A program made the translations under genes and the position numbers. Below, piece by piece: positions 27,322-49,592 of a stretch of DNA of 64,000 nt. The notes below the pieces were generated by a model, which was not told the origin of the DNA, searched no databases, and worked only from the letters and a program-made list of their open reading frames with translations. Source of the stretch: Natronomonas aquatica (GTDB lineage: Archaea > Halobacteriota > Halobacteria > Halobacteriales > Haloarculaceae); NCBI RefSeq assembly GCF_024449025.1, contig NZ_JAHLKM010000010.1, forward strand, positions 1 to 64,000, written 5' to 3'. The number at the start of each line of letters is the position of its first letter. The stretch's first letter is position 1.

Positions 27322-27406
27322 GCGCGGGTTGCCGAGCCAGGCCAAAGGCGTAGCGCTTAGGACGCTGTCCCGTAGGGGTCCGCCGGTTCGAATCCGGTCC
27401 CGCGCA
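27322..27406 (+). tRNA. tRNA-Leu (anticodon UAG)
   Basis: The 85 bases fold as a class II tRNA: acceptor stem GCGCGGG/CCCGCGC, D-arm, anticodon loop CUUAGGA with UAG at positions 34-36 (reads CUA/CUN leucine codons), a long variable arm as expected for leucine, T-arm GCCGG-UUCGAAU-CCGGU, and discriminator A. No CCA is encoded and no intron is seen. The 3' half (from 27355) is duplicated at 49408, so this half was supplied by the integrated element and restores a functional tRNA. Confidence 0.95.
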
Positions 27407-27408
27407 CT
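27355..27408 (+). repeat. attL: tRNA-Leu 3' half
   Basis: These 54 bases run from the anticodon stem through the T-arm, acceptor and two following bases. They match 49408-49461 except at one position (G at 27367, A at 49420, in the variable arm). Confidence 0.92.
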
Positions 27409-27447: not shown

Positions 27448-28620
27448 ATGAGAATGAAAAATGGCCTCGAAACCACGCTGAAGGACTGTGACGTAATTAG
27501 TAATAGTCAGTTAGCAAATGATAGGCGCATTAGGATCGTCCCACAATCGCAAGAGGGCTTCCTAACTGACAAGCAAGTAATTGATTATCACGAATATAGA
27601 AAGAATCTTTTATCATACCTGTTACAGATAGGTAAAGATCCCGAAAAGGCCAAAGGATACTCTCCGTACACCCTTTACGCCGATTCCTACCGTCAAGGAA
27701 ATTTCGATTTGTGGCTCTGGGAGCGCGACGGCGAATACAATGTACCACCTACACAACATGACGCCAACGCATACATGGATCACATCGCGTATAGCGACAA
27801 GTCTCAAACGGCGAAAGGAAAGGCGCAGGAGGCACTCCGGCGCTACTCAAAGTGGCTCCAGCACAAGTTCGGCCAAAACAAGTGGGAGTTCGAATACTCA
27901 TTCGACGGGAGTGGACAGAGCTCGGCGCAGCCACAAGACTTCCTCACAGTCGATGAACGGAGAAAGGTGAGACAAGAGGCGCTCAACGCCGGGACAATAC
28001 CGAGTAGAAGCAATATGAGTCAGGAAGAGAGACGCCAGTGGGACGGATACATCGCTCAGTTGTTGGAGAAACCCCGACATGAAGTCACCGACGAAGACTG
28101 GGGGGACATCACCGGCTGGAAGATTACCTCTATCGTGTGGACGAGCCTTGATGCAGGCCTCCGCCCAGTAGAAGTTGGCAACGCCAAAACAACGTGGGTT
28201 GATACGGCGAACGGAATCCTGCGTATCCCACGCGAAGAGTCCAGTAAGAACGAAGGAAACTGGACGGTAAGTCTCACCGAGCGGACTGCATCAGCTCTTG
28301 ACCATTGGCTGAGTGAACGAGAACTCTATGGTCGCTACGATGACACCGACGCATTGTGGTTGACGTACCGGGGAAATCCGTACGGGTCACAGAGTCTGAA
28401 CAGATGGCTTTGCAAGATCTGTAAGAAGCGGGATATAGATGTGGAGAATCGAAGCATCTCGTGGTACTCGATACGTCACTCAGTTGGGACACTCATGACC
28501 AAAGAGCGCGATCTCGCCGCGACGAAGTCTCAGCTTCGTCATAAGAGTGTGAAAACAACAATGAAGTATGATGCTGCACCGGTCGAAGACAGGAAAGATG
28601 CACTCGATAAAATGGGCTGA
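27448..28620 (+). CDS. int: tyrosine recombinase / integrase
   Basis: A 390-residue XerC/D-like integrase. The N-terminal half is a SAM-like DNA-binding domain (YHEYRKNLLSYL, then YMDHIAYSDKSQTAKGKAQE). The catalytic domain has the first Arg in LDAGLRPVEVGN (near residue 237), SWYSIRHSVGTLM with the conserved Arg-His (the usual first His is Tyr), QLRHKSVKTTMKYD, and the nucleophilic Tyr near residue 372. A second ATG lies two codons downstream. It is intact and adjacent to attL, as in pNOB8-type integration, where the gene is not split on insertion. Confidence 0.92.
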   Translation: MRMKNGLETTLKDCDVISNSQLANDRRIRIVPQSQEGFLTDKQVIDYHEYRKNLLSYLLQIGKDPEKAKGYSPYTLYADSYRQGNFDLWLWERDGEYNVPPTQHDANAYMDHIAYSDKSQTAKGKAQEALRRYSKWLQHKFGQNKWEFEYSFDGSGQSSAQPQDFLTVDERRKVRQEALNAGTIPSRSNMSQEERRQWDGYIAQLLEKPRHEVTDEDWGDITGWKITSIVWTSLDAGLRPVEVGNAKTTWVDTANGILRIPREESSKNEGNWTVSLTERTASALDHWLSERELYGRYDDTDALWLTYRGNPYGSQSLNRWLCKICKKRDIDVENRSISWYSIRHSVGTLMTKERDLAATKSQLRHKSVKTTMKYDAAPVEDRKDALDKMG

Positions 28621-29594: not shown

Positions 29595-30104
29595 ATGCAA
29601 TCAACAAGCAACTACAGCGAGACAGATCTGGCCTACACAATGGGGCTCATAGCCGGGGAGGGGTCGTTCTTCGTCACCTTCAACCGCGATGATCGGTATC
29701 GGCATGACATCTACTACGGTCCCAAGTTCTCGATCTCGATGGGAGAGAAAGAAGCAGAAATGCTCCAGAATCAGTGCCGAATCTACAGTCTCGGGACGGT
29801 CAATAAGAGTCAGAAAGGCTTCCAGTGGATCATATCGAGCCGCGCAGAGTGCCGCGAACTGATCAAACTCATCGACCAGTACCTCGAGCAAAACCCTTCC
29901 ACGGAGTTCCAGAGCGCAGCGAAACACAACGCATATCAGAGCTGGCGAGCCGCGCTGGAATTACTCAGACCGGGGCGACAGCTTACGGCTGACGAGGTGA
30001 TTGAACTGGCTGAATTGCGTGACGAGATAAACTACATACGAGCAACGAACTCGATTGAGAGTGAGGAAATCAAGAGGATCGTCAAATCGACTGATGCCGC
30101 ATAG
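29595..30104 (+). CDS. single-motif LAGLIDADG homing-endonuclease-like protein
   Basis: A 169-residue protein. Residues about 14-25, YTMGLIAGEGSF, form a LAGLIDADG helix ending in the catalytic acidic residue (Glu). One motif only is found, so it should act as a homodimer like I-CreI. The following segment (FFVTFNRDDRYRHDIYYGPKFSISM, in part) fits the DNA-contacting beta sheet, and the C-terminus is helical. It is free-standing: it interrupts no recognisable gene, and no intron ends are evident. A hairpin-rich segment follows after 50 bases. Confidence 0.8.
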   Translation: MQSTSNYSETDLAYTMGLIAGEGSFFVTFNRDDRYRHDIYYGPKFSISMGEKEAEMLQNQCRIYSLGTVNKSQKGFQWIISSRAECRELIKLIDQYLEQNPSTEFQSAAKHNAYQSWRAALELLRPGRQLTADEVIELAELRDEINYIRATNSIESEEIKRIVKSTDAA

Positions 30105-34650: not shown

Positions 34651-35721
34651 TTATGCCTGATCGCCCTCCAACTCACCGCTCCGCTCTGTGCCAGTCGCCT
34701 CACTACTGCGAAGATGGCTAAGCGTTCGGTCGTCGAACTTCGGATGGCACCAGTACTTGTAGCCGTTGAGGGCTTCGTCCCGATCGCGCCCGACGAGCTC
34801 GTGGAGTACCTCTTTCGTTAGGCCGGTGAACGAGTAAACTTCTCCATCGTGCTCCCACTGGACATTGTCGCTCTGGCCCGTGTCCCCTGTCACAGTCGCC
34901 CACCAGAAATCGTCGTCTTCGTCCCACGTTCGGTTTGCGTCCGCAGGAACACGCTCAGGATCGTATTTGACCCGCTCTCCGGGTCGGAGGACGCCTCGTT
35001 CCAGTAGGACGTTGATCGCAGCTGGACGGCGCGATCGCTGCTGTTGTTTCTCCTGCTTTTCTCGACGCTTGGTCATGTACTCCTCCGCCTCAGCGACCGG
35101 AATTACTTGCTGACTATTGAGCAGCACTCGGCCCTGATGTTCGTACGCCTCGATACGACGGCATGTGATGTCCATGCCGTATTCCTCGATGAGCCACATC
35201 ACTGGGGCGGTGATCTCCGTACCGAAGCTTCCTGCGGCGAGGACGATCCGCGGTTTCTGGTCGAGCTCGAACTCGGCCCAGCCATCACTCGACGTTGTCA
35301 GACTGTCGGACTCCCCGATGAAGTCGACAAATGTCTGTCCAACACTCTCCGGCGTCAGTTCTGTCTCGTCTCGGGAGGACCAAAATTCGCGGTAGTCTTT
35401 CTGAACATCCTCCGCAGTCAGCGTCGCACAGTAACTCGCGTACTTGATCGCCTGGAGGTCAGTCGTCCGGTCTGCACGATCCCGTTTGAGCTCGACGACG
35501 ACGAGTTTTCCCGTCTGATCGAGAGCGAGTATGTCCAGCCGGTCGCGAGTATCCTCGAAATTCGCATATTCGGAAGTGATTACGAGCAGATCCTCACCGA
35601 GTATTCGCGGCTGCTCGATCGTCCATTCTTGTAGATCCTGTCGCTCAAGCAAGCCGAGGTCAGCGAGATCCTGCTCCTTGAGTCCCTCAAGCGTGCCTTC
35701 CTCCTCGACACTAAATAGCAT
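34651..35721 (-). CDS. NucS/DUF91-type PD-(D/E)XK nuclease with RAMA-like C-terminal domain
   Basis: A 356-residue protein. Residues 1-225 match NucS/DUF91 nucleases: RLDILALDQTGKLVVVELKR gives Asp63, Glu77 and Lys79 of the PD-(D/E)XK site, followed by DLQAIKYASYCA. A basic Gln/Arg/Lys coiled linker lies near 218-233. Residues about 235-335 (AINVLLERGVLRPGERVKYD, ... then EALNGYKYWCHP) resemble the RAMA domain, proposed to read adenine methylation. Together these suggest a modification-sensing restriction nuclease. It is divergent from the MRE11-like gene across a perfect 7-bp inverted repeat. Confidence 0.72.
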   Translation of the reverse strand: MLFSVEEEGTLEGLKEQDLADLGLLERQDLQEWTIEQPRILGEDLLVITSEYANFEDTRDRLDILALDQTGKLVVVELKRDRADRTTDLQAIKYASYCATLTAEDVQKDYREFWSSRDETELTPESVGQTFVDFIGESDSLTTSSDGWAEFELDQKPRIVLAAGSFGTEITAPVMWLIEEYGMDITCRRIEAYEHQGRVLLNSQQVIPVAEAEEYMTKRREKQEKQQQRSRRPAAINVLLERGVLRPGERVKYDPERVPADANRTWDEDDDFWWATVTGDTGQSDNVQWEHDGEVYSFTGLTKEVLHELVGRDRDEALNGYKYWCHPKFDDRTLSHLRSSEATGTERSGELEGDQA

Positions 35722-35811: not shown

Positions 35812-36858
35812 ATGGTTACACGGGACGGGGTGCCGCACGATAGACGGCTGTCTGGGTCGATTACAGTGACGGTAGACAAAGTGCGGGTGAATCCCAAACC
35901 ACGGCGCGACGCTGAGCTCACCGTGCGAGACGAAGACGGGGCGGAACTGACAGTCATCATCTGGGAGACTCACGAGATCGATCAGTCGTGGGAAGAGGGG
36001 GCTACCTACGAGCTTAGCGGTGCACGTGGAAAGCGGTATTCGACAGGAAGAGGTACCAACGTCGAAGTTCAGAGCACGAAGGCGTTCGCGGCAAAGCGAG
36101 TCAGCACGAGCGACGAGACTTGTGTCCTCGTACTCGGTGACACTCATGTTGGGTATCGTCACCGACCTCGTTCCGCGAAGCCGGCGTGGGCAAGAGAAGT
36201 TAACGCTCGTGATGTATTCGCCCGCTGTTTTGAACGCGCACGCGACCTTGGCGTCGACGCCGTCATCCACGCAGGTGACGTATTCGACCATGAGAATACA
36301 CAGGGGGATCGAAACGCAGCCCGACAGGCAATCTCGCAAACCGTTGGTGCGGGAATCCCGTTCTACTACGTGTTCGGGAACCACGATGACGAAAACGGCC
36401 GGACGCTGTTAGCGTCGACTCCAGGTACTCATCTCGGGGCGAAGACATCGACCGTAACTGAGTCGCTGGTGACGCTACTGGGCGTCGACCACTGTGGCAA
36501 GTCGTTCCCGACAACTGTGCCGAACCTCTCACTGGCTGGATCTTCCGGTGTCAATGTGCTGGTCATCCACGAGTCTCCGCATCCGGTCGTCGACGAAACG
36601 GGTACCCTCTTGTACCAGACCGACGGGAACAAGGCGGACATCTCCACGTTTCTCGGTAGCACCGCCTTCGATGTCGACCTCATCGTCACGGGGCACATCC
36701 ACGTCGCCGCACACAACAGCGTCCAGGGTCACGACATCCCCGTGCTCGTCACTGGGCCCACGGTTCCGATCAGTTCCTATGAGAAGGATAGCAACCCCTC
36801 GACATGGCTATTGACTGCTACGAGCTCAGGGCTCGATCTCGACCGACAGCCGATGTAG
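35812..36858 (+). CDS. MRE11/SbcD-like metallophosphoesterase with N-terminal OB-like domain
   Basis: A 348-residue protein. Residues about 15-100 look like an OB fold (ITVTVDKVRVNP, DEDGAELTVIIWETHEID). The phosphoesterase core follows with all metal motifs in order: LVLGDTHVG (near 108), AVIHAGDVFDH (near 152), VFGNHDDENG (near 186), VIHES (near 260) and VTGHIHVAAHN (near 291). This is the arrangement of DNA exo/endonucleases such as MRE11 and SbcD, but no Rad50/SbcC partner is nearby. The OB part may supply single-strand binding. Confidence 0.8.
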   Translation: MVTRDGVPHDRRLSGSITVTVDKVRVNPKPRRDAELTVRDEDGAELTVIIWETHEIDQSWEEGATYELSGARGKRYSTGRGTNVEVQSTKAFAAKRVSTSDETCVLVLGDTHVGYRHRPRSAKPAWAREVNARDVFARCFERARDLGVDAVIHAGDVFDHENTQGDRNAARQAISQTVGAGIPFYYVFGNHDDENGRTLLASTPGTHLGAKTSTVTESLVTLLGVDHCGKSFPTTVPNLSLAGSSGVNVLVIHESPHPVVDETGTLLYQTDGNKADISTFLGSTAFDVDLIVTGHIHVAAHNSVQGHDIPVLVTGPTVPISSYEKDSNPSTWLLTATSSGLDLDRQPM

Positions 36859-39082: not shown

Positions 39083-42000
39083 ATGAGGCCGGTCGCCGTG
39101 GCACAGATCATGCCCTCAGACTTCCTCCAGTCTCGATCCGGTCGCCCGTGGAACTACGACCGAGATGGCGATGAGTTCGAGTTCTATCAAGGAAACGGCT
39201 CAAGCGCACTTGAGATCGTAGTCGTTGACCACGGCGAGCGCCCGACCAAAGAGTACCTCCAGAAGACGTATTCAGACCGTCGGGGCGGTCGAGTTAATCC
39301 AATCCTCATCGTCGCCCTCTATGGTGATCACGCGGGACTCTGTGGCCCAAGCGGTGAGGAGCCGCTCGTGTATCGAGATATTGATCGTGGCCAAGCAGAC
39401 CGCGTCTGTGATACCGCGCTTGACGAACCGGACAGACATACAGCACAGCGATTCCTCACTGAGACGCTTCCACAGCTCGAAGAAGAGCTAACTGGGCTCC
39501 GTAATCAGGGCCTCCTCTCGACGCACGAGCTCAAAGTCGGTGTCCCAGACCGTGACGACTGGGCGGATGCGACCGAACAGGCTCAACAAGCGTTCGACGA
39601 TGATCCACGAGAACTAATCAAGGGCCTCAACTACGAAATCGACCAGCTCACCGACCAGAGCTACGTGTTAAAAGACACGAGCGACGGCCACGAGCGCGCT
39701 GTAGCGATGTTTCTTCAGGAGGATGAATCGTTCGACCACGCTCAGGAACGCTTCGTGGGCCAGTCTCCGGTCGCCTACGCCCTCAACGAGGCTGACAAGC
39801 GCAACCTCGAATACGTTATCGGGAGCAGTGGCGACACACTGCGGCTGTACACGACGAACCCGGACGCCGGGTTTGGTTCGCGTGGCCGGACGGACACGTA
39901 CGTTGAGGTGAACACCAGCCTCCTTGCGGACGAGAAAGCGGCGTATCTGTGGCTGCTGTTCTCTGCGAACGCGCTCCGTGACGACGGTACGCTCCACGGC
40001 ATTATGGAGCGGTCAAAGGACTACGCGGCCGCCCTGGGAGAGCGACTCCGCGAGCGCATCTACGACGATGTCGTCCCGGACCTCGCCGAGGCGATTGCCC
40101 GCGCGCGGAATCTGGATGACCCCACGAAGGAGCAGCTGGACGAGACGTATGAGATGACAATCGTGCTGCTCTATCGGCTCCTATTCATCGCCTATGCCGA
40201 GGATGAGGAGTTCCTTCCAAGGCGACGCAACGAGCGGTACGATCGGAACTCGCTCAAGCAGAAGGCCCACGATCTCCACGACTTTATCGAGGGCGACAGC
40301 GAGTTCGACGCTGCGTTCTATGACCACTGGGACGACGTGATGCACCTCTCGCGCGCGGTCCATTATGGCCACGACGAGCTGGGGCTTCCAGCCTACGACG
40401 GCCGCTTGCTTTCCGAAGACGAGGACATCTCCGAGGCGGGCGCAAAGCTGGCTGACATCCGGCTCAACAACGCCGAGTTTGGCCCGGTACTGGCGAAGCT
40501 GCTGATCGACGAGACCGGCGACGGGTATCAGGGTCCAGTCGACTTCCGGAACATCGGTGTGAGGGAGTTCGGTGTGATCTACGAGGGGCTGTTGGAGTCC
40601 GAACTGTCGCTGGCGGAACAGCCGCTCACCACCGACGACGAGGGACACTACGTCCCGGTCGACTCGGACGGACAGCAGACGATTGGAGACGAGGAAGTCA
40701 TCGTCGACGAAGGCGAAGTCTACCTCCACGGTCAGTCTGGTGAACGGAAGGCGACGGGGACGTACTACACCAAATCACGTTTCGTCGAGCATCTTCTCGA
40801 CCACTCGCTTGAACCCGCGCTGGACGACCACCTCGACCGGATTGATCGGCTTCGCGAAGAGGAGGGCGAGCACGCAGCCGCAGACGCATTCTTCGACCTT
40901 CGCGTCTCGGACATCGCGATGGGATCTGGACACTTCCTTGTCGGGGCTGTCGACCGGATTGAGTCACGCTTGTACGCGTACTTGACCGAGAACCCGTTGT
41001 CACCAGTCGAGGACGAACTCGATAATCTGGAGGATGCTGCGTTGGAGGCGTTCGAGGATGAGGAATACGCGCCGCCGGTTGAGCGCGGTCAGCTTCTTCG
41101 GCGTCAGGTCGCCCGACGTTGTATCTATGGGGTCGATCTTAATCCGCTGTCAACTGAGCTCGCTCGGTTATCAATTTGGGTCCACACGTTTGTTCCTGGC
41201 CTACCGTTGACTTTCCTCGACTACAATCTCGTAACCGGAGATTCACTGGCTGGGATTGGTACTTTGGACGAAGTCACCGAGATCCTCGATGTCGAGCAGT
41301 CATCCCTGGGGATGTTTGCTGGCGGTCAGAGCGTGATGAAGGAGATCCGTGACGACATCGATCAACTGGGTAACTTTGCCGATGCCAGCGCCGAACAGGT
41401 GCAGGAAGCCCGTGAGACGCGTGCAAAAATCGAAGAAAAGATCGAACAAGTTAGAGCGCGATTTGATGTTCTCGCTGCATCACGGATCAACGATGATATT
41501 GACACCGATCCTGTTTCGGATACGGAGGTCGATATAACCGAAGAAAGCTGCTACGACAAAGCACAAGAGGTTTTGAAATCGACTCGTCCCCTTCACTTCC
41601 CGACGGCGTTTCCTGAAGTATTCGATGGGGACAAATCCGGATTTGATGTTATCGTAGGAAACCCCCCGTGGGAAAAAGCGAAAATCGAACGACACGCCTT
41701 TTGGTCTCGATATTACCCTGGTCTCCAGCGTGGGATGACTTCACAACAACGTGAAGAAAAGATAGAAGAACTCGAAACCAAGCGTCCTGATTTGTTGACT
41801 GAGCTTGAGCAACGGCAAGAAGAACAGCAAAAGAGAAGCAAGTTCTTAATCGAAGGAGATTATCCCGGTATCGGGTCGGGCGACCCCGATCTATATCAAG
41901 CGTTTTGCTGGCGTTTTTGGAACTTACTTTCGTCAGATGGGCGAGTGGGCGTTGTCTTGCCACGAGGCGCATTTATGCAGAAAGGTTCTGAAGAATTTCG

Positions 42001-43207
42001 TCATCGGGTTCTCAAAGAAGGTGATTTCGAAGATGTAACATTTATAAAAAATAAGGGACAGTGGGCTTTCCAGATTGGTGTCCGAGTTACAATCGGATTA
42101 GCGGCATTTACCAAGCAACGTTCTGACGGTATGGTTCCTATCCGAGGTCCATTTAATAGTCCAGAAAGCTTTGAAGAGGGAGTTTCCAGTGATCCATATC
42201 TATTCAGTGTAGAGGATGTTGAGTCTTGGACGGATGTAGCAGCTTTCCCACTCCTCCCCCCAGATAGACGGTCAACAGACGCCTTTAGACAGATTCAGAG
42301 ATCACCTCGCGTCGATAAGAGCCAGGATGTTGACTGGAGAATCCGACCATACCGTACAGGGATCACGCGATCCGATTGTTTAGACTTAGAGGACCCCTCA
42401 TCTGTAGATTATGATGTATGGCCAGTTTACAAAGGTAGCTCATTCGACATTTGGGAGCCAGAGACGGGCATCTATTACGGTTATGGAAAAGTGAATGACC
42501 TTTGCGAGTATTTGCAGAACAAGAGGGTTAACAGCAAAAATCACCCTCGCTCAGCTTTCTATGAAATGGACAATGACTGGATAGAAGATCCAGATACTTT
42601 ACCGTGCTACTCACCACGTATTGCGTTCCGGCGGGTAACTCAGAGGACTAATAGTAGAACCGTCTTGGCTGCGTTAATCCCGCCGAGGGTGTTTATGAGA
42701 GATGCTGACCCGTTCTTATTGTGGCCCCAAGGTGATGAGAAGGATGAAGCATACTTGATTGGTGTGCTATCAAGTATCCCGTTAGATTGGTATTCGCGCC
42801 TCTTTGTAGAAGAACACCTTGACTACTACATCTTCAATGGATTACCAGTCCCTCGTCCGGGCCGTAATGATCGACTCCGAGAACGAGCTGTCGAACTCTC
42901 CGGGCGACTCGCAGCAGTTGACGATCGCTACGCGGGCTGGGCTGATGAGGTCGGCGTCGAATACGGCCCACTTGATGATGAGGAGATGCAGGACAAAATC
43001 TACGAGTTGGATGCCATCGTCGCCCACCTTTACGGCCTCTCTCGAGAACATATCGAAATCATCTTCGAGACGTTTCACGATGGATGGAACTACGAAGAAC
43101 GCTTAGACCGCGTCCTCGACTACTACGCGAGCTGGGCCGATAAACTTGATCTCGACCACGCAAACCGCGAGGAGGAACGACAGGCGGGTACACGAAACGA
43201 TGACTGA
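39083..43207 (+). CDS. large Eco57I/PglX-type DNA adenine methyltransferase
   Basis: A 1374-residue protein (an ATG at 39110 could be the start; AATATAT lies 30 bases before it). An N-terminal region of about 550 residues has no clear motif. The methyltransferase core follows: GTYYTKSRFVEHLLD (near 556), SAM motif I DIAMGSGHFLVGAVD (near 611), YGVDLNPLSTELARLSIW, and the N6-adenine catalytic motif VGNPPWEKAK (near 858). A target-recognition region runs to about 1280, then a helical C-terminus. It overlaps the helicase gene by ATGACTGA. It should methylate host DNA; with the helicase it makes a restriction-like system. The segment 41450-42840 is far more AT-rich than the rest of the gene. Confidence 0.85.
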   Translation: MRPVAVAQIMPSDFLQSRSGRPWNYDRDGDEFEFYQGNGSSALEIVVVDHGERPTKEYLQKTYSDRRGGRVNPILIVALYGDHAGLCGPSGEEPLVYRDIDRGQADRVCDTALDEPDRHTAQRFLTETLPQLEEELTGLRNQGLLSTHELKVGVPDRDDWADATEQAQQAFDDDPRELIKGLNYEIDQLTDQSYVLKDTSDGHERAVAMFLQEDESFDHAQERFVGQSPVAYALNEADKRNLEYVIGSSGDTLRLYTTNPDAGFGSRGRTDTYVEVNTSLLADEKAAYLWLLFSANALRDDGTLHGIMERSKDYAAALGERLRERIYDDVVPDLAEAIARARNLDDPTKEQLDETYEMTIVLLYRLLFIAYAEDEEFLPRRRNERYDRNSLKQKAHDLHDFIEGDSEFDAAFYDHWDDVMHLSRAVHYGHDELGLPAYDGRLLSEDEDISEAGAKLADIRLNNAEFGPVLAKLLIDETGDGYQGPVDFRNIGVREFGVIYEGLLESELSLAEQPLTTDDEGHYVPVDSDGQQTIGDEEVIVDEGEVYLHGQSGERKATGTYYTKSRFVEHLLDHSLEPALDDHLDRIDRLREEEGEHAAADAFFDLRVSDIAMGSGHFLVGAVDRIESRLYAYLTENPLSPVEDELDNLEDAALEAFEDEEYAPPVERGQLLRRQVARRCIYGVDLNPLSTELARLSIWVHTFVPGLPLTFLDYNLVTGDSLAGIGTLDEVTEILDVEQSSLGMFAGGQSVMKEIRDDIDQLGNFADASAEQVQEARETRAKIEEKIEQVRARFDVLAASRINDDIDTDPVSDTEVDITEESCYDKAQEVLKSTRPLHFPTAFPEVFDGDKSGFDVIVGNPPWEKAKIERHAFWSRYYPGLQRGMTSQQREEKIEELETKRPDLLTELEQRQEEQQKRSKFLIEGDYPGIGSGDPDLYQAFCWRFWNLLSSDGRVGVVLPRGAFMQKGSEEFRHRVLKEGDFEDVTFIKNKGQWAFQIGVRVTIGLAAFTKQRSDGMVPIRGPFNSPESFEEGVSSDPYLFSVEDVESWTDVAAFPLLPPDRRSTDAFRQIQRSPRVDKSQDVDWRIRPYRTGITRSDCLDLEDPSSVDYDVWPVYKGSSFDIWEPETGIYYGYGKVNDLCEYLQNKRVNSKNHPRSAFYEMDNDWIEDPDTLPCYSPRIAFRRVTQRTNSRTVLAALIPPRVFMRDADPFLLWPQGDEKDEAYLIGVLSSIPLDWYSRLFVEEHLDYYIFNGLPVPRPGRNDRLRERAVELSGRLAAVDDRYAGWADEVGVEYGPLDDEEMQDKIYELDAIVAHLYGLSREHIEIIFETFHDGWNYEERLDRVLDYYASWADKLDLDHANREEERQAGTRNDD

Positions 43208-46200
43208 GCAACCGCAGTTCGTCGACAACCGCGACGGCAATACCCTGTCGACAGCGATCAACGCCTATCTCTCGGATCTTGACGACACGCTCGCCAACGA
43301 CCCCGACCTGGACGTCGTTACGGGCTATTTCAACCCACGCGGGTACTTCTCGGTCTCCGACGGCCTCGAACACGTTGACCAGGTACGGCTCCTTGTCGGT
43401 GCACAGCCGAGTAACGAGGGCACGGAACGATGGCGACAGCCCGGAGATCCTCGAGACGAGGAGTACAACCAGAAACGAATCAACGAGTCGCTCCAGACGC
43501 TCGACCACAACCTCAAGCGTGACCGCGACCTGCTTGGATTCTCTCGCCAAGTCGACGACAATCTTCAGGAGCTGGTCGATTTCCTCCGCAGCGATCGTGT
43601 CGAGGTCCGTCGTCACGAGGATCGGTTCATCCACGGGAAGGCGTACCTGTTCTCGGACAATCAGGGCGTTCTCGCGGGGTCGTCTAACTTCACGGGCGCG
43701 GGGCTAAATTCGAATCTGGAGCTGAACATCGGTGCGTACAATCCTCACGTCACGGGTCAGGTTCAGGAGTGGTTCGACGACCTCTGGGCCGAAAGCGAGG
43801 AGTTCGATCTCGCCGCGCTGTACGAAGAACGGTTCGAACCCTACGACCCGTACCTCATCTATCTGCGCGTCCTGTACGAGCGATACGGCGAAGAACTGGA
43901 AGAGGAGAAGGAAGAGGAGGACGGCATCAACCTCACGAACTTCCAGCAGGACGCAGTGCGCCGCGCTAACGGGTTCCTCGAGAAACACGGCGGCGTCATC
44001 GTCGCTGATGAGGTCGGCCTCGGTAAGACATACATCGCTGGCGAGCTCCTCCGCCAGTACGTCAACAAGAATCGCCAGCGGGCGCTGGTTGTGGCACCAG
44101 CCTACCTTCGGGATGGGATGTGGACCCAGAAGGGTTCGGAGTGGGGTGTTCAGTTCGAAACGGTATCCTACGCTGAGCTCCGACGCGATCGGCAACTCGG
44201 CGGCGATCTGAACGTACTGAATCTTGACGTCGACGAGTACCAACTGGTCGTTATCGACGAAGCTCACGCATTCCGAAATCCCGGCACTCAGCAGTCACAC
44301 GCGCTCAGGACGCTCCTGCGTGGCAACCCACCAAAGGATGTCGTGATGCTCACGGCAACACCTGTTAACAACTCCCTGTGGGATCTCTACTATCTCCTTT
44401 ACTACTTCATCAAAAACGACGCGGCGTTTGCTAACGAGGGCATCCGATCACTTCGCGAGCGATTCAAGGCCGCCCAGTCGGAGGACCCGTCCGATCTGAG
44501 TCCGGACATGCTGTTCGACGTCCTTGACGAGACGACGGTTCGGAGAACTCGGCGGTTCATCAAGAACTACTATGAAAACGCCACGATGCCCGACGGGGAG
44601 GGTGGCTCTGTTCGGATTAACTTCCCCGATCCGAACCCGAAACGGGTTGATTACACGTTCTCTGATACCTTCGGCGACGCATACTTCGAGGACGTGTCCC
44701 GGGGACTGGCCGCTGGCGACCACGATGAAGCTGATCTGTCGCTGGCCCGGTATCGCCCGTCGTTTTACCTCGAAGGCGAAGAGGACGCATCAGAGCTCTC
44801 TCTCGTCGGACTGCTCCGCACGGGACTGCTCAAGCGGTTCGAATCGTCGAGCCGCGCCTTCGCCAATACGCTCCAGCGAATGGTGACACAGAACCGCGCT
44901 GCGGTTCAGCTTATGGAAGAAGGGTACTTCCCCGACCCTGATGCCATCGATGAGTGGGTAGAGATGGACAGCGATGCGGCATTTGATGAGACATTGGGTG
45001 ACGCCTCCGATGGCCACATCCCTCTCGGTGCTGTCGAAGCTGACCCAGACCGGTTGCGTGCAGATTTAGAAAACGATATCGCCATTCTCGAACGATGGCG
45101 GGAGGGCGCGGCCGCAGTTGAGCGCGAAGACGACGAGAAGCTCCACGCTCTACGAGATGCGCTTCAGGATGTTGTCTCAGAGGCGCGTAATGATGCGCAG
45201 TCGGGGGAAGTGGATGAAGAGAATGTTGAGTCGAGCTTCCGACGCAACCGGAAAGTGCTGCTGTTCTCGTACTACGAGGACACCGTCGATTGGATCTACG
45301 AGTACCTGGAAGATGTCGTTGCCGAAGACGACGAGCTCTCGTGTTACGAGGGGCGGATCGCGGCGGTCAGCGGCGATGGGTCGAAGTACGAGGTAACACG
45401 TGAGCAGGCGGTTCATGGTTTCGCACCGAACTCTGGTGACGCGCCGCCAGATGCGACGGACGAGTTCGATATCCTGATCTCGACTGACGTGCTCGCGCAG
45501 GGTGTCAATCTCCAAGAGGCCCGGACAGTGATCAACTACGATCTCCCATGGAATCCGATGCGAGTCGTCCAGCGGAACGGGCGTATCGATCGGGTCAACT
45601 CGCCGCACTCGAAGATATTCCCGATCACGTTCTTCCCAGAAGATCGGCTCGACGATCTCCTTGAGCTCGAACATCGTGTTCGACAGAAGCTCACGCAGGC
45701 CGCCCGATCAATCGGTGTTAGTGGCGGCGTCATCCCGGAGATGGAGACGCTGAACCAGAACTTCGCGGAGCGTGTCGAAGACATCGGGGCGATCCAAGAG
45801 GAAGACACGGAGTTCTACGAGGAAGGTGGTGGGACTGCGGCCGCCTACTCCGGAGAGGAGTACCGTCAAGAACTCCGGAAAGGGCTCGAGACACGGGAAG
45901 ATCAGGTTACCTCGCTTCCGTGGGCGGCGGGCTCGGGCTTCGTTGGCGACAACCCAGGTTACTTTTTCTGCGCACGGATTGGTGATGAGGTATTCATGCG
46001 GTTCCTCCCTGAAGGGATGGAGGAGGAGGACGAGATCGTTCAGGACACGCTCACGTGCTTGAAGCGAATCGAGTGTACCGAGGAGACAGAACGAACGCTC
46101 CCGGACACAATGCGCGATCGCGTGTACGATGCGTGGGAGACAGCCCGCTCAGATATCTACTCCCAGTGGCAAGAGCAGACTGACCCGCTGAACGTCCAGC

Positions 46201-46562
46201 CTGACATCCGGAAGCTGTTTCGTGAAGTCGGCGAGCACTTGCGGGAGAACTGGCCGGACGACATGACACAAGACAGGCTTCAGGAGACGGTTGAAGCCGT
46301 TGAGGCTCCGTGGGGCCGGCGGTATGAACGCGAGCTCCGCGAAATATACGAGAACGAGGGCCTCGGTCCGGTTGAGAAGTCCCGACAGTTGGTCGAGAAA
46401 GTCGATGATCTCGGTCTTCAGCCGTTTGAAGCCCCAGACCCACTTTCGCCGATTCAGGAAGACGAGGTCAAGCTCATTTGCTGGATGGTTGTCACTCCCG
46501 AAGAAAACGAGAGTGAGGATGACCGACCGCAGCTGATGAGTCAGGTGACGTTCGGAACGTAG
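43200..46562 (+). CDS. phospholipase D-SNF2-type helicase fusion
   Basis: A 1120-residue protein, start MTEQPQFVDNRDGNTLS, coupled to the methyltransferase by an 8-base overlap (an open frame from 43146 is an artefact of that overlap). Residues about 20-180 form a phospholipase D nuclease-type domain: FIHGKAYLFSDNQGVLAGSS, with His145, Lys147 and Asp153 of one HKD motif. Residues about 255-830 are an SF2/SNF2 helicase: VADEVGLGKTYIAGELL, VVIDEAHAFRN, LTATPVNNS, and motif VI VVQRNGRIDR. The C-terminal 290 residues are unassigned. A DNA translocase/nuclease acting on unmethylated DNA is inferred. Confidence 0.87.
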   Translation: MTEQPQFVDNRDGNTLSTAINAYLSDLDDTLANDPDLDVVTGYFNPRGYFSVSDGLEHVDQVRLLVGAQPSNEGTERWRQPGDPRDEEYNQKRINESLQTLDHNLKRDRDLLGFSRQVDDNLQELVDFLRSDRVEVRRHEDRFIHGKAYLFSDNQGVLAGSSNFTGAGLNSNLELNIGAYNPHVTGQVQEWFDDLWAESEEFDLAALYEERFEPYDPYLIYLRVLYERYGEELEEEKEEEDGINLTNFQQDAVRRANGFLEKHGGVIVADEVGLGKTYIAGELLRQYVNKNRQRALVVAPAYLRDGMWTQKGSEWGVQFETVSYAELRRDRQLGGDLNVLNLDVDEYQLVVIDEAHAFRNPGTQQSHALRTLLRGNPPKDVVMLTATPVNNSLWDLYYLLYYFIKNDAAFANEGIRSLRERFKAAQSEDPSDLSPDMLFDVLDETTVRRTRRFIKNYYENATMPDGEGGSVRINFPDPNPKRVDYTFSDTFGDAYFEDVSRGLAAGDHDEADLSLARYRPSFYLEGEEDASELSLVGLLRTGLLKRFESSSRAFANTLQRMVTQNRAAVQLMEEGYFPDPDAIDEWVEMDSDAAFDETLGDASDGHIPLGAVEADPDRLRADLENDIAILERWREGAAAVEREDDEKLHALRDALQDVVSEARNDAQSGEVDEENVESSFRRNRKVLLFSYYEDTVDWIYEYLEDVVAEDDELSCYEGRIAAVSGDGSKYEVTREQAVHGFAPNSGDAPPDATDEFDILISTDVLAQGVNLQEARTVINYDLPWNPMRVVQRNGRIDRVNSPHSKIFPITFFPEDRLDDLLELEHRVRQKLTQAARSIGVSGGVIPEMETLNQNFAERVEDIGAIQEEDTEFYEEGGGTAAAYSGEEYRQELRKGLETREDQVTSLPWAAGSGFVGDNPGYFFCARIGDEVFMRFLPEGMEEEDEIVQDTLTCLKRIECTEETERTLPDTMRDRVYDAWETARSDIYSQWQEQTDPLNVQPDIRKLFREVGEHLRENWPDDMTQDRLQETVEAVEAPWGRRYERELREIYENEGLGPVEKSRQLVEKVDDLGLQPFEAPDPLSPIQEDEVKLICWMVVTPEENESEDDRPQLMSQVTFGT

Positions 46563-46623
46563 ACCTTGGGTGCTACTCGAATTAGGCGGGAGAATTATTT
46601 CCTTTCCTGGTGAATGGTAGCGT

Positions 46624-46890
46624 ATGCCATCAGATCTGATCGAGTACGATGAGGATCATCGACGAGATGACCCGGGGCCTGACCGGCAAGGAGCATTCAA
46701 ACGTGGGTGGGGTGCCGCAGTGAAAGGCGATGATGAGTCCTCACGATACAACGATGATCCAGAGTTAACCAATCTTACATGGGACAACTTGGGGTATCGG
46801 CTCGGACGCCTATTCGGCCCTACCTCAAAGGAACGGCAACAAGAGCTATTCGAGTGGTGTGTTGCCCAGCAGGAGGAAGATACCGAGTAG
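46624..46890 (+). CDS. small acidic protein following the helicase, function unknown
   Basis: An 88-residue protein 61 bases after the helicase stop on the same strand. The N-terminal half is polar and charged; the C-terminal half has TWDNLGYRLGRLFGPTSKER and ends in EWCVAQQEEDTE. There is no known motif. Position suggests a third component of the methyltransferase-helicase module or an associated regulator. Confidence 0.6.
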   Translation: MPSDLIEYDEDHRRDDPGPDRQGAFKRGWGAAVKGDDESSRYNDDPELTNLTWDNLGYRLGRLFGPTSKERQQELFEWCVAQQEEDTE

Positions 46891-49407: not shown

Positions 49408-49461
49408 GCTTAGGACGCTATCCCGTAGGGGTCCGCCGGTTCGAATCCGGTCCCGCGCACT
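49408..49461 (+). repeat. attR: tRNA-Leu 3' half copy
   Basis: The 54-bp sequence is identical to 27355-27408 but for A at 49420. It lacks the tRNA 5' half, so it is not a functional tRNA. Only the tRNA-derived part is shared; the bases on each side differ from those at attL, which marks the crossover limits. Confidence 0.92.
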
Positions 49462-49570
49462 GAACGGAAGACGACGAGCGTAGCGAATCGTCTGAAGCGA
49501 GAGAGCAGAACCGATTCGAACCCTGCAAGGAACGCGCAGCGAACGGCTGTGAGCGAGCATTTCTTGTTTC

Positions 49571-49592
49571 GGTTCGAATCCGGTCCCGCGCA
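49571..49592 (+). repeat. third partial attachment repeat
   Basis: GGTTCGAATCCGGTCCCGCG plus CA repeats the T-arm and acceptor end of tRNA-Leu once more, 110 bp beyond attR. It probably marks an older integration or the original chromosomal end of the tRNA gene. Confidence 0.7.

What the first reader, a model, noticed from the sequence alone, without database searches (positions are those of the whole stretch)
39083..46890. Methyltransferase plus phospholipase D-helicase defence module on a tRNA-Leu element
A 1374-residue Eco57I/PglX-type adenine methyltransferase overlaps by eight bases a 1120-residue protein that joins one HKD phospholipase D motif to an SNF2-like helicase, with a small 88-residue gene behind. 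DISARM uses a methyltransferase, an SNF2 helicase and a PLD protein as separate parts, but its other components (DUF1998 DrmB, DrmA) are absent. The module looks like a minimal two- or three-gene restriction system in which PLD is the nuclease. Eco57I-type and SNF2/PLD proteins are known in archaea; whether this exact set has been characterised I cannot tell.
Basis: partly seen in the sequence, partly recalled or inferred. Interest (0 to 1): 0.7.

Follow-up and report, generated by a model that had tools for sequence, protein, structure and literature searches.

The report
Two-gene restriction system with PLD motor
A mobile DNA element in a salt-loving archaeon carries two joined genes, a DNA-marking enzyme with an exchangeable recognition part and a DNA-cutting motor protein, that together look like a compact restriction system shared by archaea and bacteria but not, as far as I could find, described as a system before.

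Summary
A 1374-aa Eco57I-type adenine methyltransferase overlaps by 8 bp a 1120-aa PLD-SNF2 protein, on a 22-kb element in tRNA-Leu. The pair is a conserved two-gene unit, found in 19 of 391 Halobacteria species and in Acidobacteriota and Actinomycetota, always adjacent where testable. The 88-aa gene has a homologue in only one of 18 relatives and is not part of it. Methyltransferase residues ~880-1240 are hypervariable and low in GC3 while the rest, and the PLD-SNF2 partner, co-evolve (r=0.95 against 0.30). That is an exchangeable target-recognition domain, so specificity sits in the methyltransferase and the PLD-SNF2 protein must borrow it. PLD active-site residues are invariant; no conserved (D/E)xK exists in the methyltransferase, so PLD is the only recognisable nuclease. 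The methyltransferase lineage is that of DISARM DrmMI; the motor belongs to a PLD-SNF2 family used by at least three other two-gene systems in haloarchaea. DUF1998, PglZ and DUF499 are not near the pair in any relative. Best reading: a minimal ATP-dependent restriction-modification system, the logic of Type ISP split over two proteins, with PLD as nuclease. New variant of a known kind; function untested. AlphaFold models were too poor to use.

The parts
27322..27408 (+). tRNA-Leu gene with attL (27355-27408), left end of the integrative element
27448..28620 (+). tyrosine integrase of the element (390 aa)
   Evidence: Pfam Phage_integrase 6e-15
39083..43207 (+). adenine DNA methyltransferase / specificity subunit, 1374 aa (likelier start ATG 39110); DrmMI lineage
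40910..40936 (+). methyltransferase motif I DIAMGSGHF (residues 610-618), SAM binding
   Evidence: conserved in 16 of 17 family A proteins by pattern; bacterial L057 reads AMGSAHF
41660..41671 (+). methyltransferase motif IV NPPW (residues 860-863), adenine N6 catalysis
   Evidence: invariant in family A
41720..42802 (+). predicted target-recognition domain (about residues 880-1240): hypervariable, low GC3
43200..46562 (+). PLD nuclease-SNF2 helicase restriction subunit, 1120 aa; 8-bp overlap with the methyltransferase gene
43632..43721 (+). PLD active site HGK...GSSN...E (residues 145-174)
   Evidence: H145, K147, S161, N163, E174 invariant in archaeal and bacterial relatives
44007..44030 (+). 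Walker A DEVGLGKT (residues 270-277)
45570..45593 (+). SF2 motif VI QRNGRIDR (residues 791-798)
46624..46890 (+). 88-aa ORF: passenger, not a conserved member of the system
   Evidence: homologue in only 1 of 18 orthologous loci
49408..49461 (+). attR, 54-bp copy of the tRNA-Leu 3' end

Best explanation
A two-gene, ATP-dependent restriction-modification system carried by a tRNA-Leu integrative element. The methyltransferase recognises a sequence through its C-terminal TRD and methylates an adenine in host DNA (inferred). On DNA whose site is unmethylated it engages the PLD-SNF2 protein (inferred); the SNF2 motor moves along DNA, and because each chain carries one PLD half-site, two chains must meet to form a nuclease that cuts both strands (inferred from PLD nucleases such as SauUSI and CglI). 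Shown here: the pair is one inherited unit across Archaea and Bacteria; all catalytic residues of methyltransferase, motor and PLD are kept; recognition diversity is confined to the methyltransferase; no other nuclease signature or third gene is conserved. Overall logic: Type ISP/Type I restriction with nuclease-motor and methyltransferase-TRD on two polypeptides.
For: Adjacency: 15 of 18 other Halobacteria with the PLD-SNF2 orthologue have an intact methyltransferase orthologue directly beside it; the other three are a contig-edge fragment (G259), a contig edge (G345) and a truncated remnant behind an inserted ORF (G052). Same order in bacteria: 4 of 4 full-length hits in genomes and four actinobacterial plasmids. 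No third gene is shared by most loci. TRD: across 105 pairs, helicase identity predicts methyltransferase-core identity (r=0.95) but not TRD identity (r=0.30); G006/G080 helicase 96%, core 91%, TRD 44%; TRD GC3 0.36-0.55 against core 0.55-0.73 in all 16. Family C shows the same: helicase 82-94%, methyltransferase 49-61%. PLD residues invariant in five families; no conserved (D/E)xK in 17 methyltransferases. Asymmetric decay: G052 keeps an intact PLD-SNF2 gene after losing its methyltransferase, as expected if the nuclease needs the methyltransferase to target; G140 keeps the methyltransferase and has a frameshifted motor.
Against: No methylation, cleavage, transformation or phage data exist here. 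The methyltransferase has no significant PDB sequence match and both AlphaFold models were poor (mean pLDDT 50 and 54), so neither the TRD fold nor a complex is shown. The PLD-SNF2 gene in G052 may be silent rather than harmless. Element carriage also fits an addiction role.
Confidence: 0.75

Rival explanations
1. The methyltransferase alone is a Type IIG restriction enzyme (as PADLOC's model name says) and the PLD-SNF2 gene is an unrelated neighbour.
For: PADLOC PDLC03620 'REase_MTase_IIG' covers nearly the whole protein at 879 bits.
Against: The two genes stay adjacent from haloarchaea to Actinomycetota and Acidobacteriota and co-evolve at r=0.95 outside the TRD; no (D/E)xK motif is conserved in 17 methyltransferases.
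Confidence: 0.05
2. A reduced or degenerate DISARM or BREX-type system that blocks phage without cutting DNA through PLD.
For: The methyltransferase is profile-closest to haloarchaeal DISARM DrmMI (hhalign E 1e-89) and the partner matches DrmD models.
Against: DUF1998 (MZB), PglZ and DUF499 genes are not near the pair in any of the 19 genomes; the motor is closer to other PLD-SNF2 families (E 1e-51 to 1e-115) than to DrmD (1e-33) and carries PLD in place of DrmD's N-terminal region; the active sites are intact and the pair recurs in the same two-gene form in two domains of life.
Confidence: 0.1
3. A modification-dependent (Type IV-like) nuclease of SauUSI style next to an epigenetic methyltransferase: the PLD-SNF2 protein attacks foreign modified DNA on its own.
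For: SauUSI is a PLD-helicase that works alone on methylated DNA (PMC7913695).
Against: No modification-reader family was found in P0002 by Pfam; the PLD-SNF2 protein is uniformly conserved and tied to a methyltransferase whose specificity varies.
Confidence: 0.07
4. Mainly an addiction module that keeps the element in the host, with defence secondary.
For: It sits on an integrative element, on plasmids and on a putative viral contig with a terminase.
Against: G052 lost the methyltransferase with the PLD-SNF2 gene intact; ATP-dependent systems whose nuclease needs the methyltransferase are poor addiction modules (general knowledge).
Confidence: 0.12

Closest known systems
Type-2 BREX-related (BR) systems (Nucleic Acids Res 2026, PMC12839542)
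   Same: A DNA methyltransferase with an N-terminal PLD (HKD)-SNF2 helicase as the proposed restriction effector.
   Different: BR systems are defined by a DUF499 ATPase, and type 2 also by DUF3780. Here DUF499 is absent from the genome and never near the pair in relatives. The haloarchaeal BR-like loci I found (L143, L144) have DUF499, DUF7680, a DUF1156/N6_N4 methyltransferase unrelated to this one (hhalign E 0.55) and a PLD-SNF2 protein that falls outside the two-gene families.
DISARM class I (drmMI, drmD, drmA, drmB, drmC); also ARMADA (PMC12458937)
   Same: Adenine methyltransferase of the same lineage plus a SNF2 helicase; DISARM also uses a PLD protein.
   Different: No DrmA or DrmB and no conserved third gene; PLD is fused to the motor; the motor is not of the DrmD branch.
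Type ISP / Type I restriction enzymes (from general knowledge)
   Same: Methyltransferase-TRD sets specificity, an SF2 motor translocates, the nuclease cuts unmethylated DNA.
   Different: Two polypeptides, PLD instead of a PD-(D/E)XK nuclease, SNF2-type motor.
CglI / NgoAVII (PMC4267653, PMC5737866)
   Same: PLD nuclease, SF2 ATPase and methyltransferase in one restriction system.
   Different: There the nuclease and helicase are separate proteins and a separate methyltransferase gene is used; here nuclease and motor are fused and recognition is carried by the methyltransferase.
SauUSI (PMC7913695)
   Same: PLD nuclease fused to a translocating SF2 motor, dimerised through the nuclease domains.
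   Different: SauUSI is modification-dependent, with its own target-recognition domain and no methyltransferase partner.

Membership tests
DISARM | DrmA and DrmB (DUF1998) genes in the locus | tested here: not met
   No MZB/DUF1998 match near the pair in 19 genomes; no conserved third gene. A genuine DISARM-I locus in the same class (L137) scores for DrmA, DrmB, DrmMI and DrmD.
DISARM | DrmMI-type methyltransferase | tested here: met
   PADLOC DrmMI 243 bits; hhalign against haloarchaeal DrmMI E 1e-89 over 910 columns.
DISARM | DrmD-branch SNF2 helicase | tested here: not met
   Groups with PLD-SNF2 families away from DrmD (SH-aLRT 100).
Type-2 BREX-related (BR) | DUF499 ATPase in the locus | tested here: not met
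   No DUF499 in the own genome; none near the pair elsewhere.
Type-2 BREX-related (BR) | DUF3780 gene | tested here: inconclusive
   No match in 19 genomes, but the search rang nowhere, controls included.
Type-2 BREX-related (BR) | N-terminal PLD on a SNF2 helicase | tested here: met
   PLDc_2 then SNF2 and Helicase_C.
BREX | PglZ gene in the locus | tested here: not met
   No PglZ match near the pair in 19 genomes.
Type IIG restriction enzyme | Nuclease in the same chain as the methyltransferase | tested here: not met
   No conserved (D/E)xK column pair in 17 proteins; the fold of the N-terminal region was not resolved.
Restriction-modification system (general) | Methyltransferase with a variable target-recognition domain and a linked nuclease | tested here: met
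Restriction-modification system (general) | Cleavage of unmethylated DNA and protection by methylation | not testable with these tools
   Needs a methylome and restriction assays.
Type ISP / Type I (works like) | ATP-driven translocation and long-range cleavage | not testable with these tools
   Only the motor motifs are shown.

The most novel reading that the evidence does not exclude
A previously unnamed class of ATP-dependent restriction systems, made of only two proteins and shared by Archaea and Bacteria, in which a PLD-SNF2 nuclease-motor takes its target from a separate Eco57I-type methyltransferase with an exchangeable TRD; the same motor family has been paired with at least two methyltransferase lineages, one of them that of DISARM.
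Probability: 0.5. Interest if true: 0.65.

Novelty: new variant of a known kind. Interest (0 to 1): 0.5.

Why it matters
It would be a minimal, two-gene form of ATP-dependent restriction with PLD as nuclease, and a link between DISARM-type methyltransferases and simple restriction-modification. It asks a testable question about DISARM and BREX: what the extra components add to a methyltransferase-plus-SNF2 core. One copy lies on plasmid pHLAC01 of Halorubrum lacusprofundi, so the test can start in a cultured strain. PADLOC's label for the methyltransferase (Type IIG) and the RefSeq labels (hypothetical protein, helicase-related protein) hide the system.

Tried and rejected
AlphaFold of P0002 (mean pLDDT 50) and of P0001 residues 1-1200 (54) with 5-6 rows: too poor; Foldseek gave no match at E<=0.001 for the methyltransferase and only generic SNF2 for the motor, so these were not used. 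Reading the N-terminal methyltransferase region as an inactive PD-(D/E)XK fold: only weak hits (HsdR, Hjc, RecU; E about 1), left open. Viral collection with P0002: nothing. Annotated phages: only partial helicase matches. Literature: nine full-text searches found no description of the two-gene system; subscription journals are mostly not held. DUF3780 search was uninformative.
Full report
What is there. The window holds a 22.05-kb integrative element: tRNA-Leu (27322-27407), a tyrosine integrase behind it (27448-28620) and a 54-bp copy of the tRNA 3' end at 49408-49461. In a genome of the same genus (G299) tRNA-Leu lies about 170 bp from the acyl-CoA ligase gene that follows attR here, on one contig, and the left-flank gene lies beside a tRNA-Leu copy on another, as expected of a site without the element, although one contig breaks at the tRNA. 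The two genes of the finding lie inside the element, on its + strand, and overlap by 8 bp. Methyltransferase orthologues align from residue 9 or 10, so translation probably starts at 39110.

The pair is the unit. In 391 Halobacteria species, 19 (the own genome included) have a long orthologue of the PLD-SNF2 protein, in one of them (G140) frameshifted (58-90% identity). In 15 of the other 18 an intact methyltransferase orthologue lies directly beside it; in G259 only its C-terminal part is on the contig, in G345 the motor gene lies at a contig edge, and in G052 only the last 111 residues of the methyltransferase remain behind a 330-aa ORF that looks like a transposase (not searched against a family library). 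The same two genes in the same order are found in Vicinamibacteria, Thermoanaerobaculia, Microbacteriaceae and Nonomuraea and on plasmids of Euzebya, Mycobacterium gallinarum, Rhodococcus erythropolis and Paenarthrobacter aurescens. In L055 two ORFs lie between them, and in L056 the methyltransferase reading frame is split. No third gene recurs in most loci; the commonest neighbour is in 7 of 19, kilobases away. The 88-aa gene has one homologue, in G308.

Where specificity lies. Along the methyltransferase, identity among close orthologues is about 0.8-0.96 for most of residues 41-800, falls to 0.3-0.6 over about 880-1240, and rises again to the C-terminus; the PLD-SNF2 protein shows no such hole. 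Over 105 pairs of genomes, motor identity correlates with methyltransferase-core identity (r=0.95) and hardly with the variable region (r=0.30). Examples: G006 and G080, motor 96%, core 91%, variable region 44%; G359 and G117, 95, 93, 56; conversely G117 and G239 share an 86% variable region at motor 85%. The variable region has lower GC3 than the core in all 16 sequences. This is the signature of an exchangeable target-recognition domain. Because the motor-nuclease does not vary with it, it is unlikely to have an independent matching specificity; it should take it from the methyltransferase, as in Type I, III and ISP enzymes. This is inference from sequence.

Which nuclease. H145, K147, S161, N163 and E174 of the PLD site are invariant from haloarchaea to Actinomycetota; the D of 'HKD' is not. 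Motor motifs are kept. In 17 family-A methyltransferases no column pair (D/E)xK is conserved anywhere, so PADLOC's Type IIG label is probably a misnomer here. Each chain has one PLD motif, so a dimer is expected to form one active site, as in PLD nucleases generally; SauUSI is a dimer held together by its nuclease domains (PMC7913695) and two CglI R2H2 complexes are thought to be needed for a double-strand break (PMC5737866).

Relatives. Four further PLD-SNF2 families are paired with Eco57I-type methyltransferases: B (L053, L153, L157-L159) and C (L054, L154-L156) with the methyltransferase first, D (L160-L163) with the motor first, and a looser bacterial group E (Nostoc, Deinococcus plasmids). 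In C, motors are 82-94% identical and methyltransferases 49-61%, the same pattern as above. In the motor tree A-E lie together, apart from DISARM DrmD and from the PLD-SNF2 helicases of DUF499 loci (SH-aLRT 100; long branches, quick method). Profile comparison shows a mosaic: the A methyltransferase is closest to haloarchaeal DISARM DrmMI (E 1e-89) and far from B-E (1e-15 to 1e-25), whereas the A motor is closest to the other PLD-SNF2 motors (1e-51 to 1e-115) and far from DrmD (1e-33). The methyltransferase tree does not resolve the deep order, so partner exchange is a reading, not a proof.

Membership. DUF1998, DUF499 and PglZ genes are not near the pair in any of the 19 genomes, and a true DISARM-I locus (L137) and DUF499 loci with PLD-SNF2 (L143, L144) from the same class look different. 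So it is not DISARM, BREX or BR, though it uses parts of the same stock. The closest published proposal, the Type-2 BR system with an HKD-SNF2 effector and an N6-methyltransferase (PMC12839542), supports the idea that such an effector restricts DNA.

Natural experiments. G052 has an intact PLD-SNF2 reading frame without its methyltransferase, and G140 an intact methyltransferase with a frameshifted motor. A nuclease that cut unmodified sites by itself should not survive loss of the methyltransferase, unless silent.

Mobility. Besides this element, the pair sits on plasmids (Halorubrum lacusprofundi pHLAC01, Halalkalicoccus and others) and on an 88.7-kb IMG/VR contig that also encodes a terminase, which may be a virus or a provirus.

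Limits. No functional data; poor structure models; literature limited to open-access papers; counts are for a sample of one genome per species.

Noticed in passing
window 34651-35721 (-): NucS-type nuclease with a weak RAMA (methylation-associated) match; homologues lie 0.4-1.1 kb from the pair in L037-L040, so it may be an accessory effector.
   Followed up: partly
L034 (own genome, contig C76) 355-7034: A second PLD-SNF2 protein (1270 aa) next to a 391-aa HSDR_N-type protein and a convergent ORF like the C-terminal half of a methyltransferase: possibly another unusual restriction set.
   Followed up: partly
L135 5980-13504: IMG/VR contig of 88.7 kb with a terminase carries the intact pair (methyltransferase 71%, motor 81%), with the same 8-bp overlap: a virus or provirus that carries a restriction system.
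   Followed up: partly
G065:C3 318362-321421 (Halorubrum lacusprofundi pHLAC01): Second, C-terminally truncated copy of the methyltransferase (83% over residues 9-1025), perhaps a store for TRD exchange.
   Followed up: no
L160-L163: PLD-SNF2 family D with reversed gene order (motor first, then methyltransferase), strongly conserved between species and with short methyltransferase branches, so little TRD variation.
   Followed up: no
L143, L144: DUF499 loci with DUF7680, a DUF1156/N6_N4 methyltransferase and a PLD-SNF2 protein; DUF7680 stands where published Type-2 BR loci have DUF3780.
   Followed up: partly
window 49570-49592: Third 23-bp copy of the tRNA-Leu 3' end just outside attR, perhaps a scar of an earlier integration.
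   Followed up: no
window 29595-30104 and 35812-36858: Free-standing LAGLIDADG endonuclease ORF, and an Mre11-like phosphoesterase with about 100 extra N-terminal residues, both on the element.
   Followed up: no
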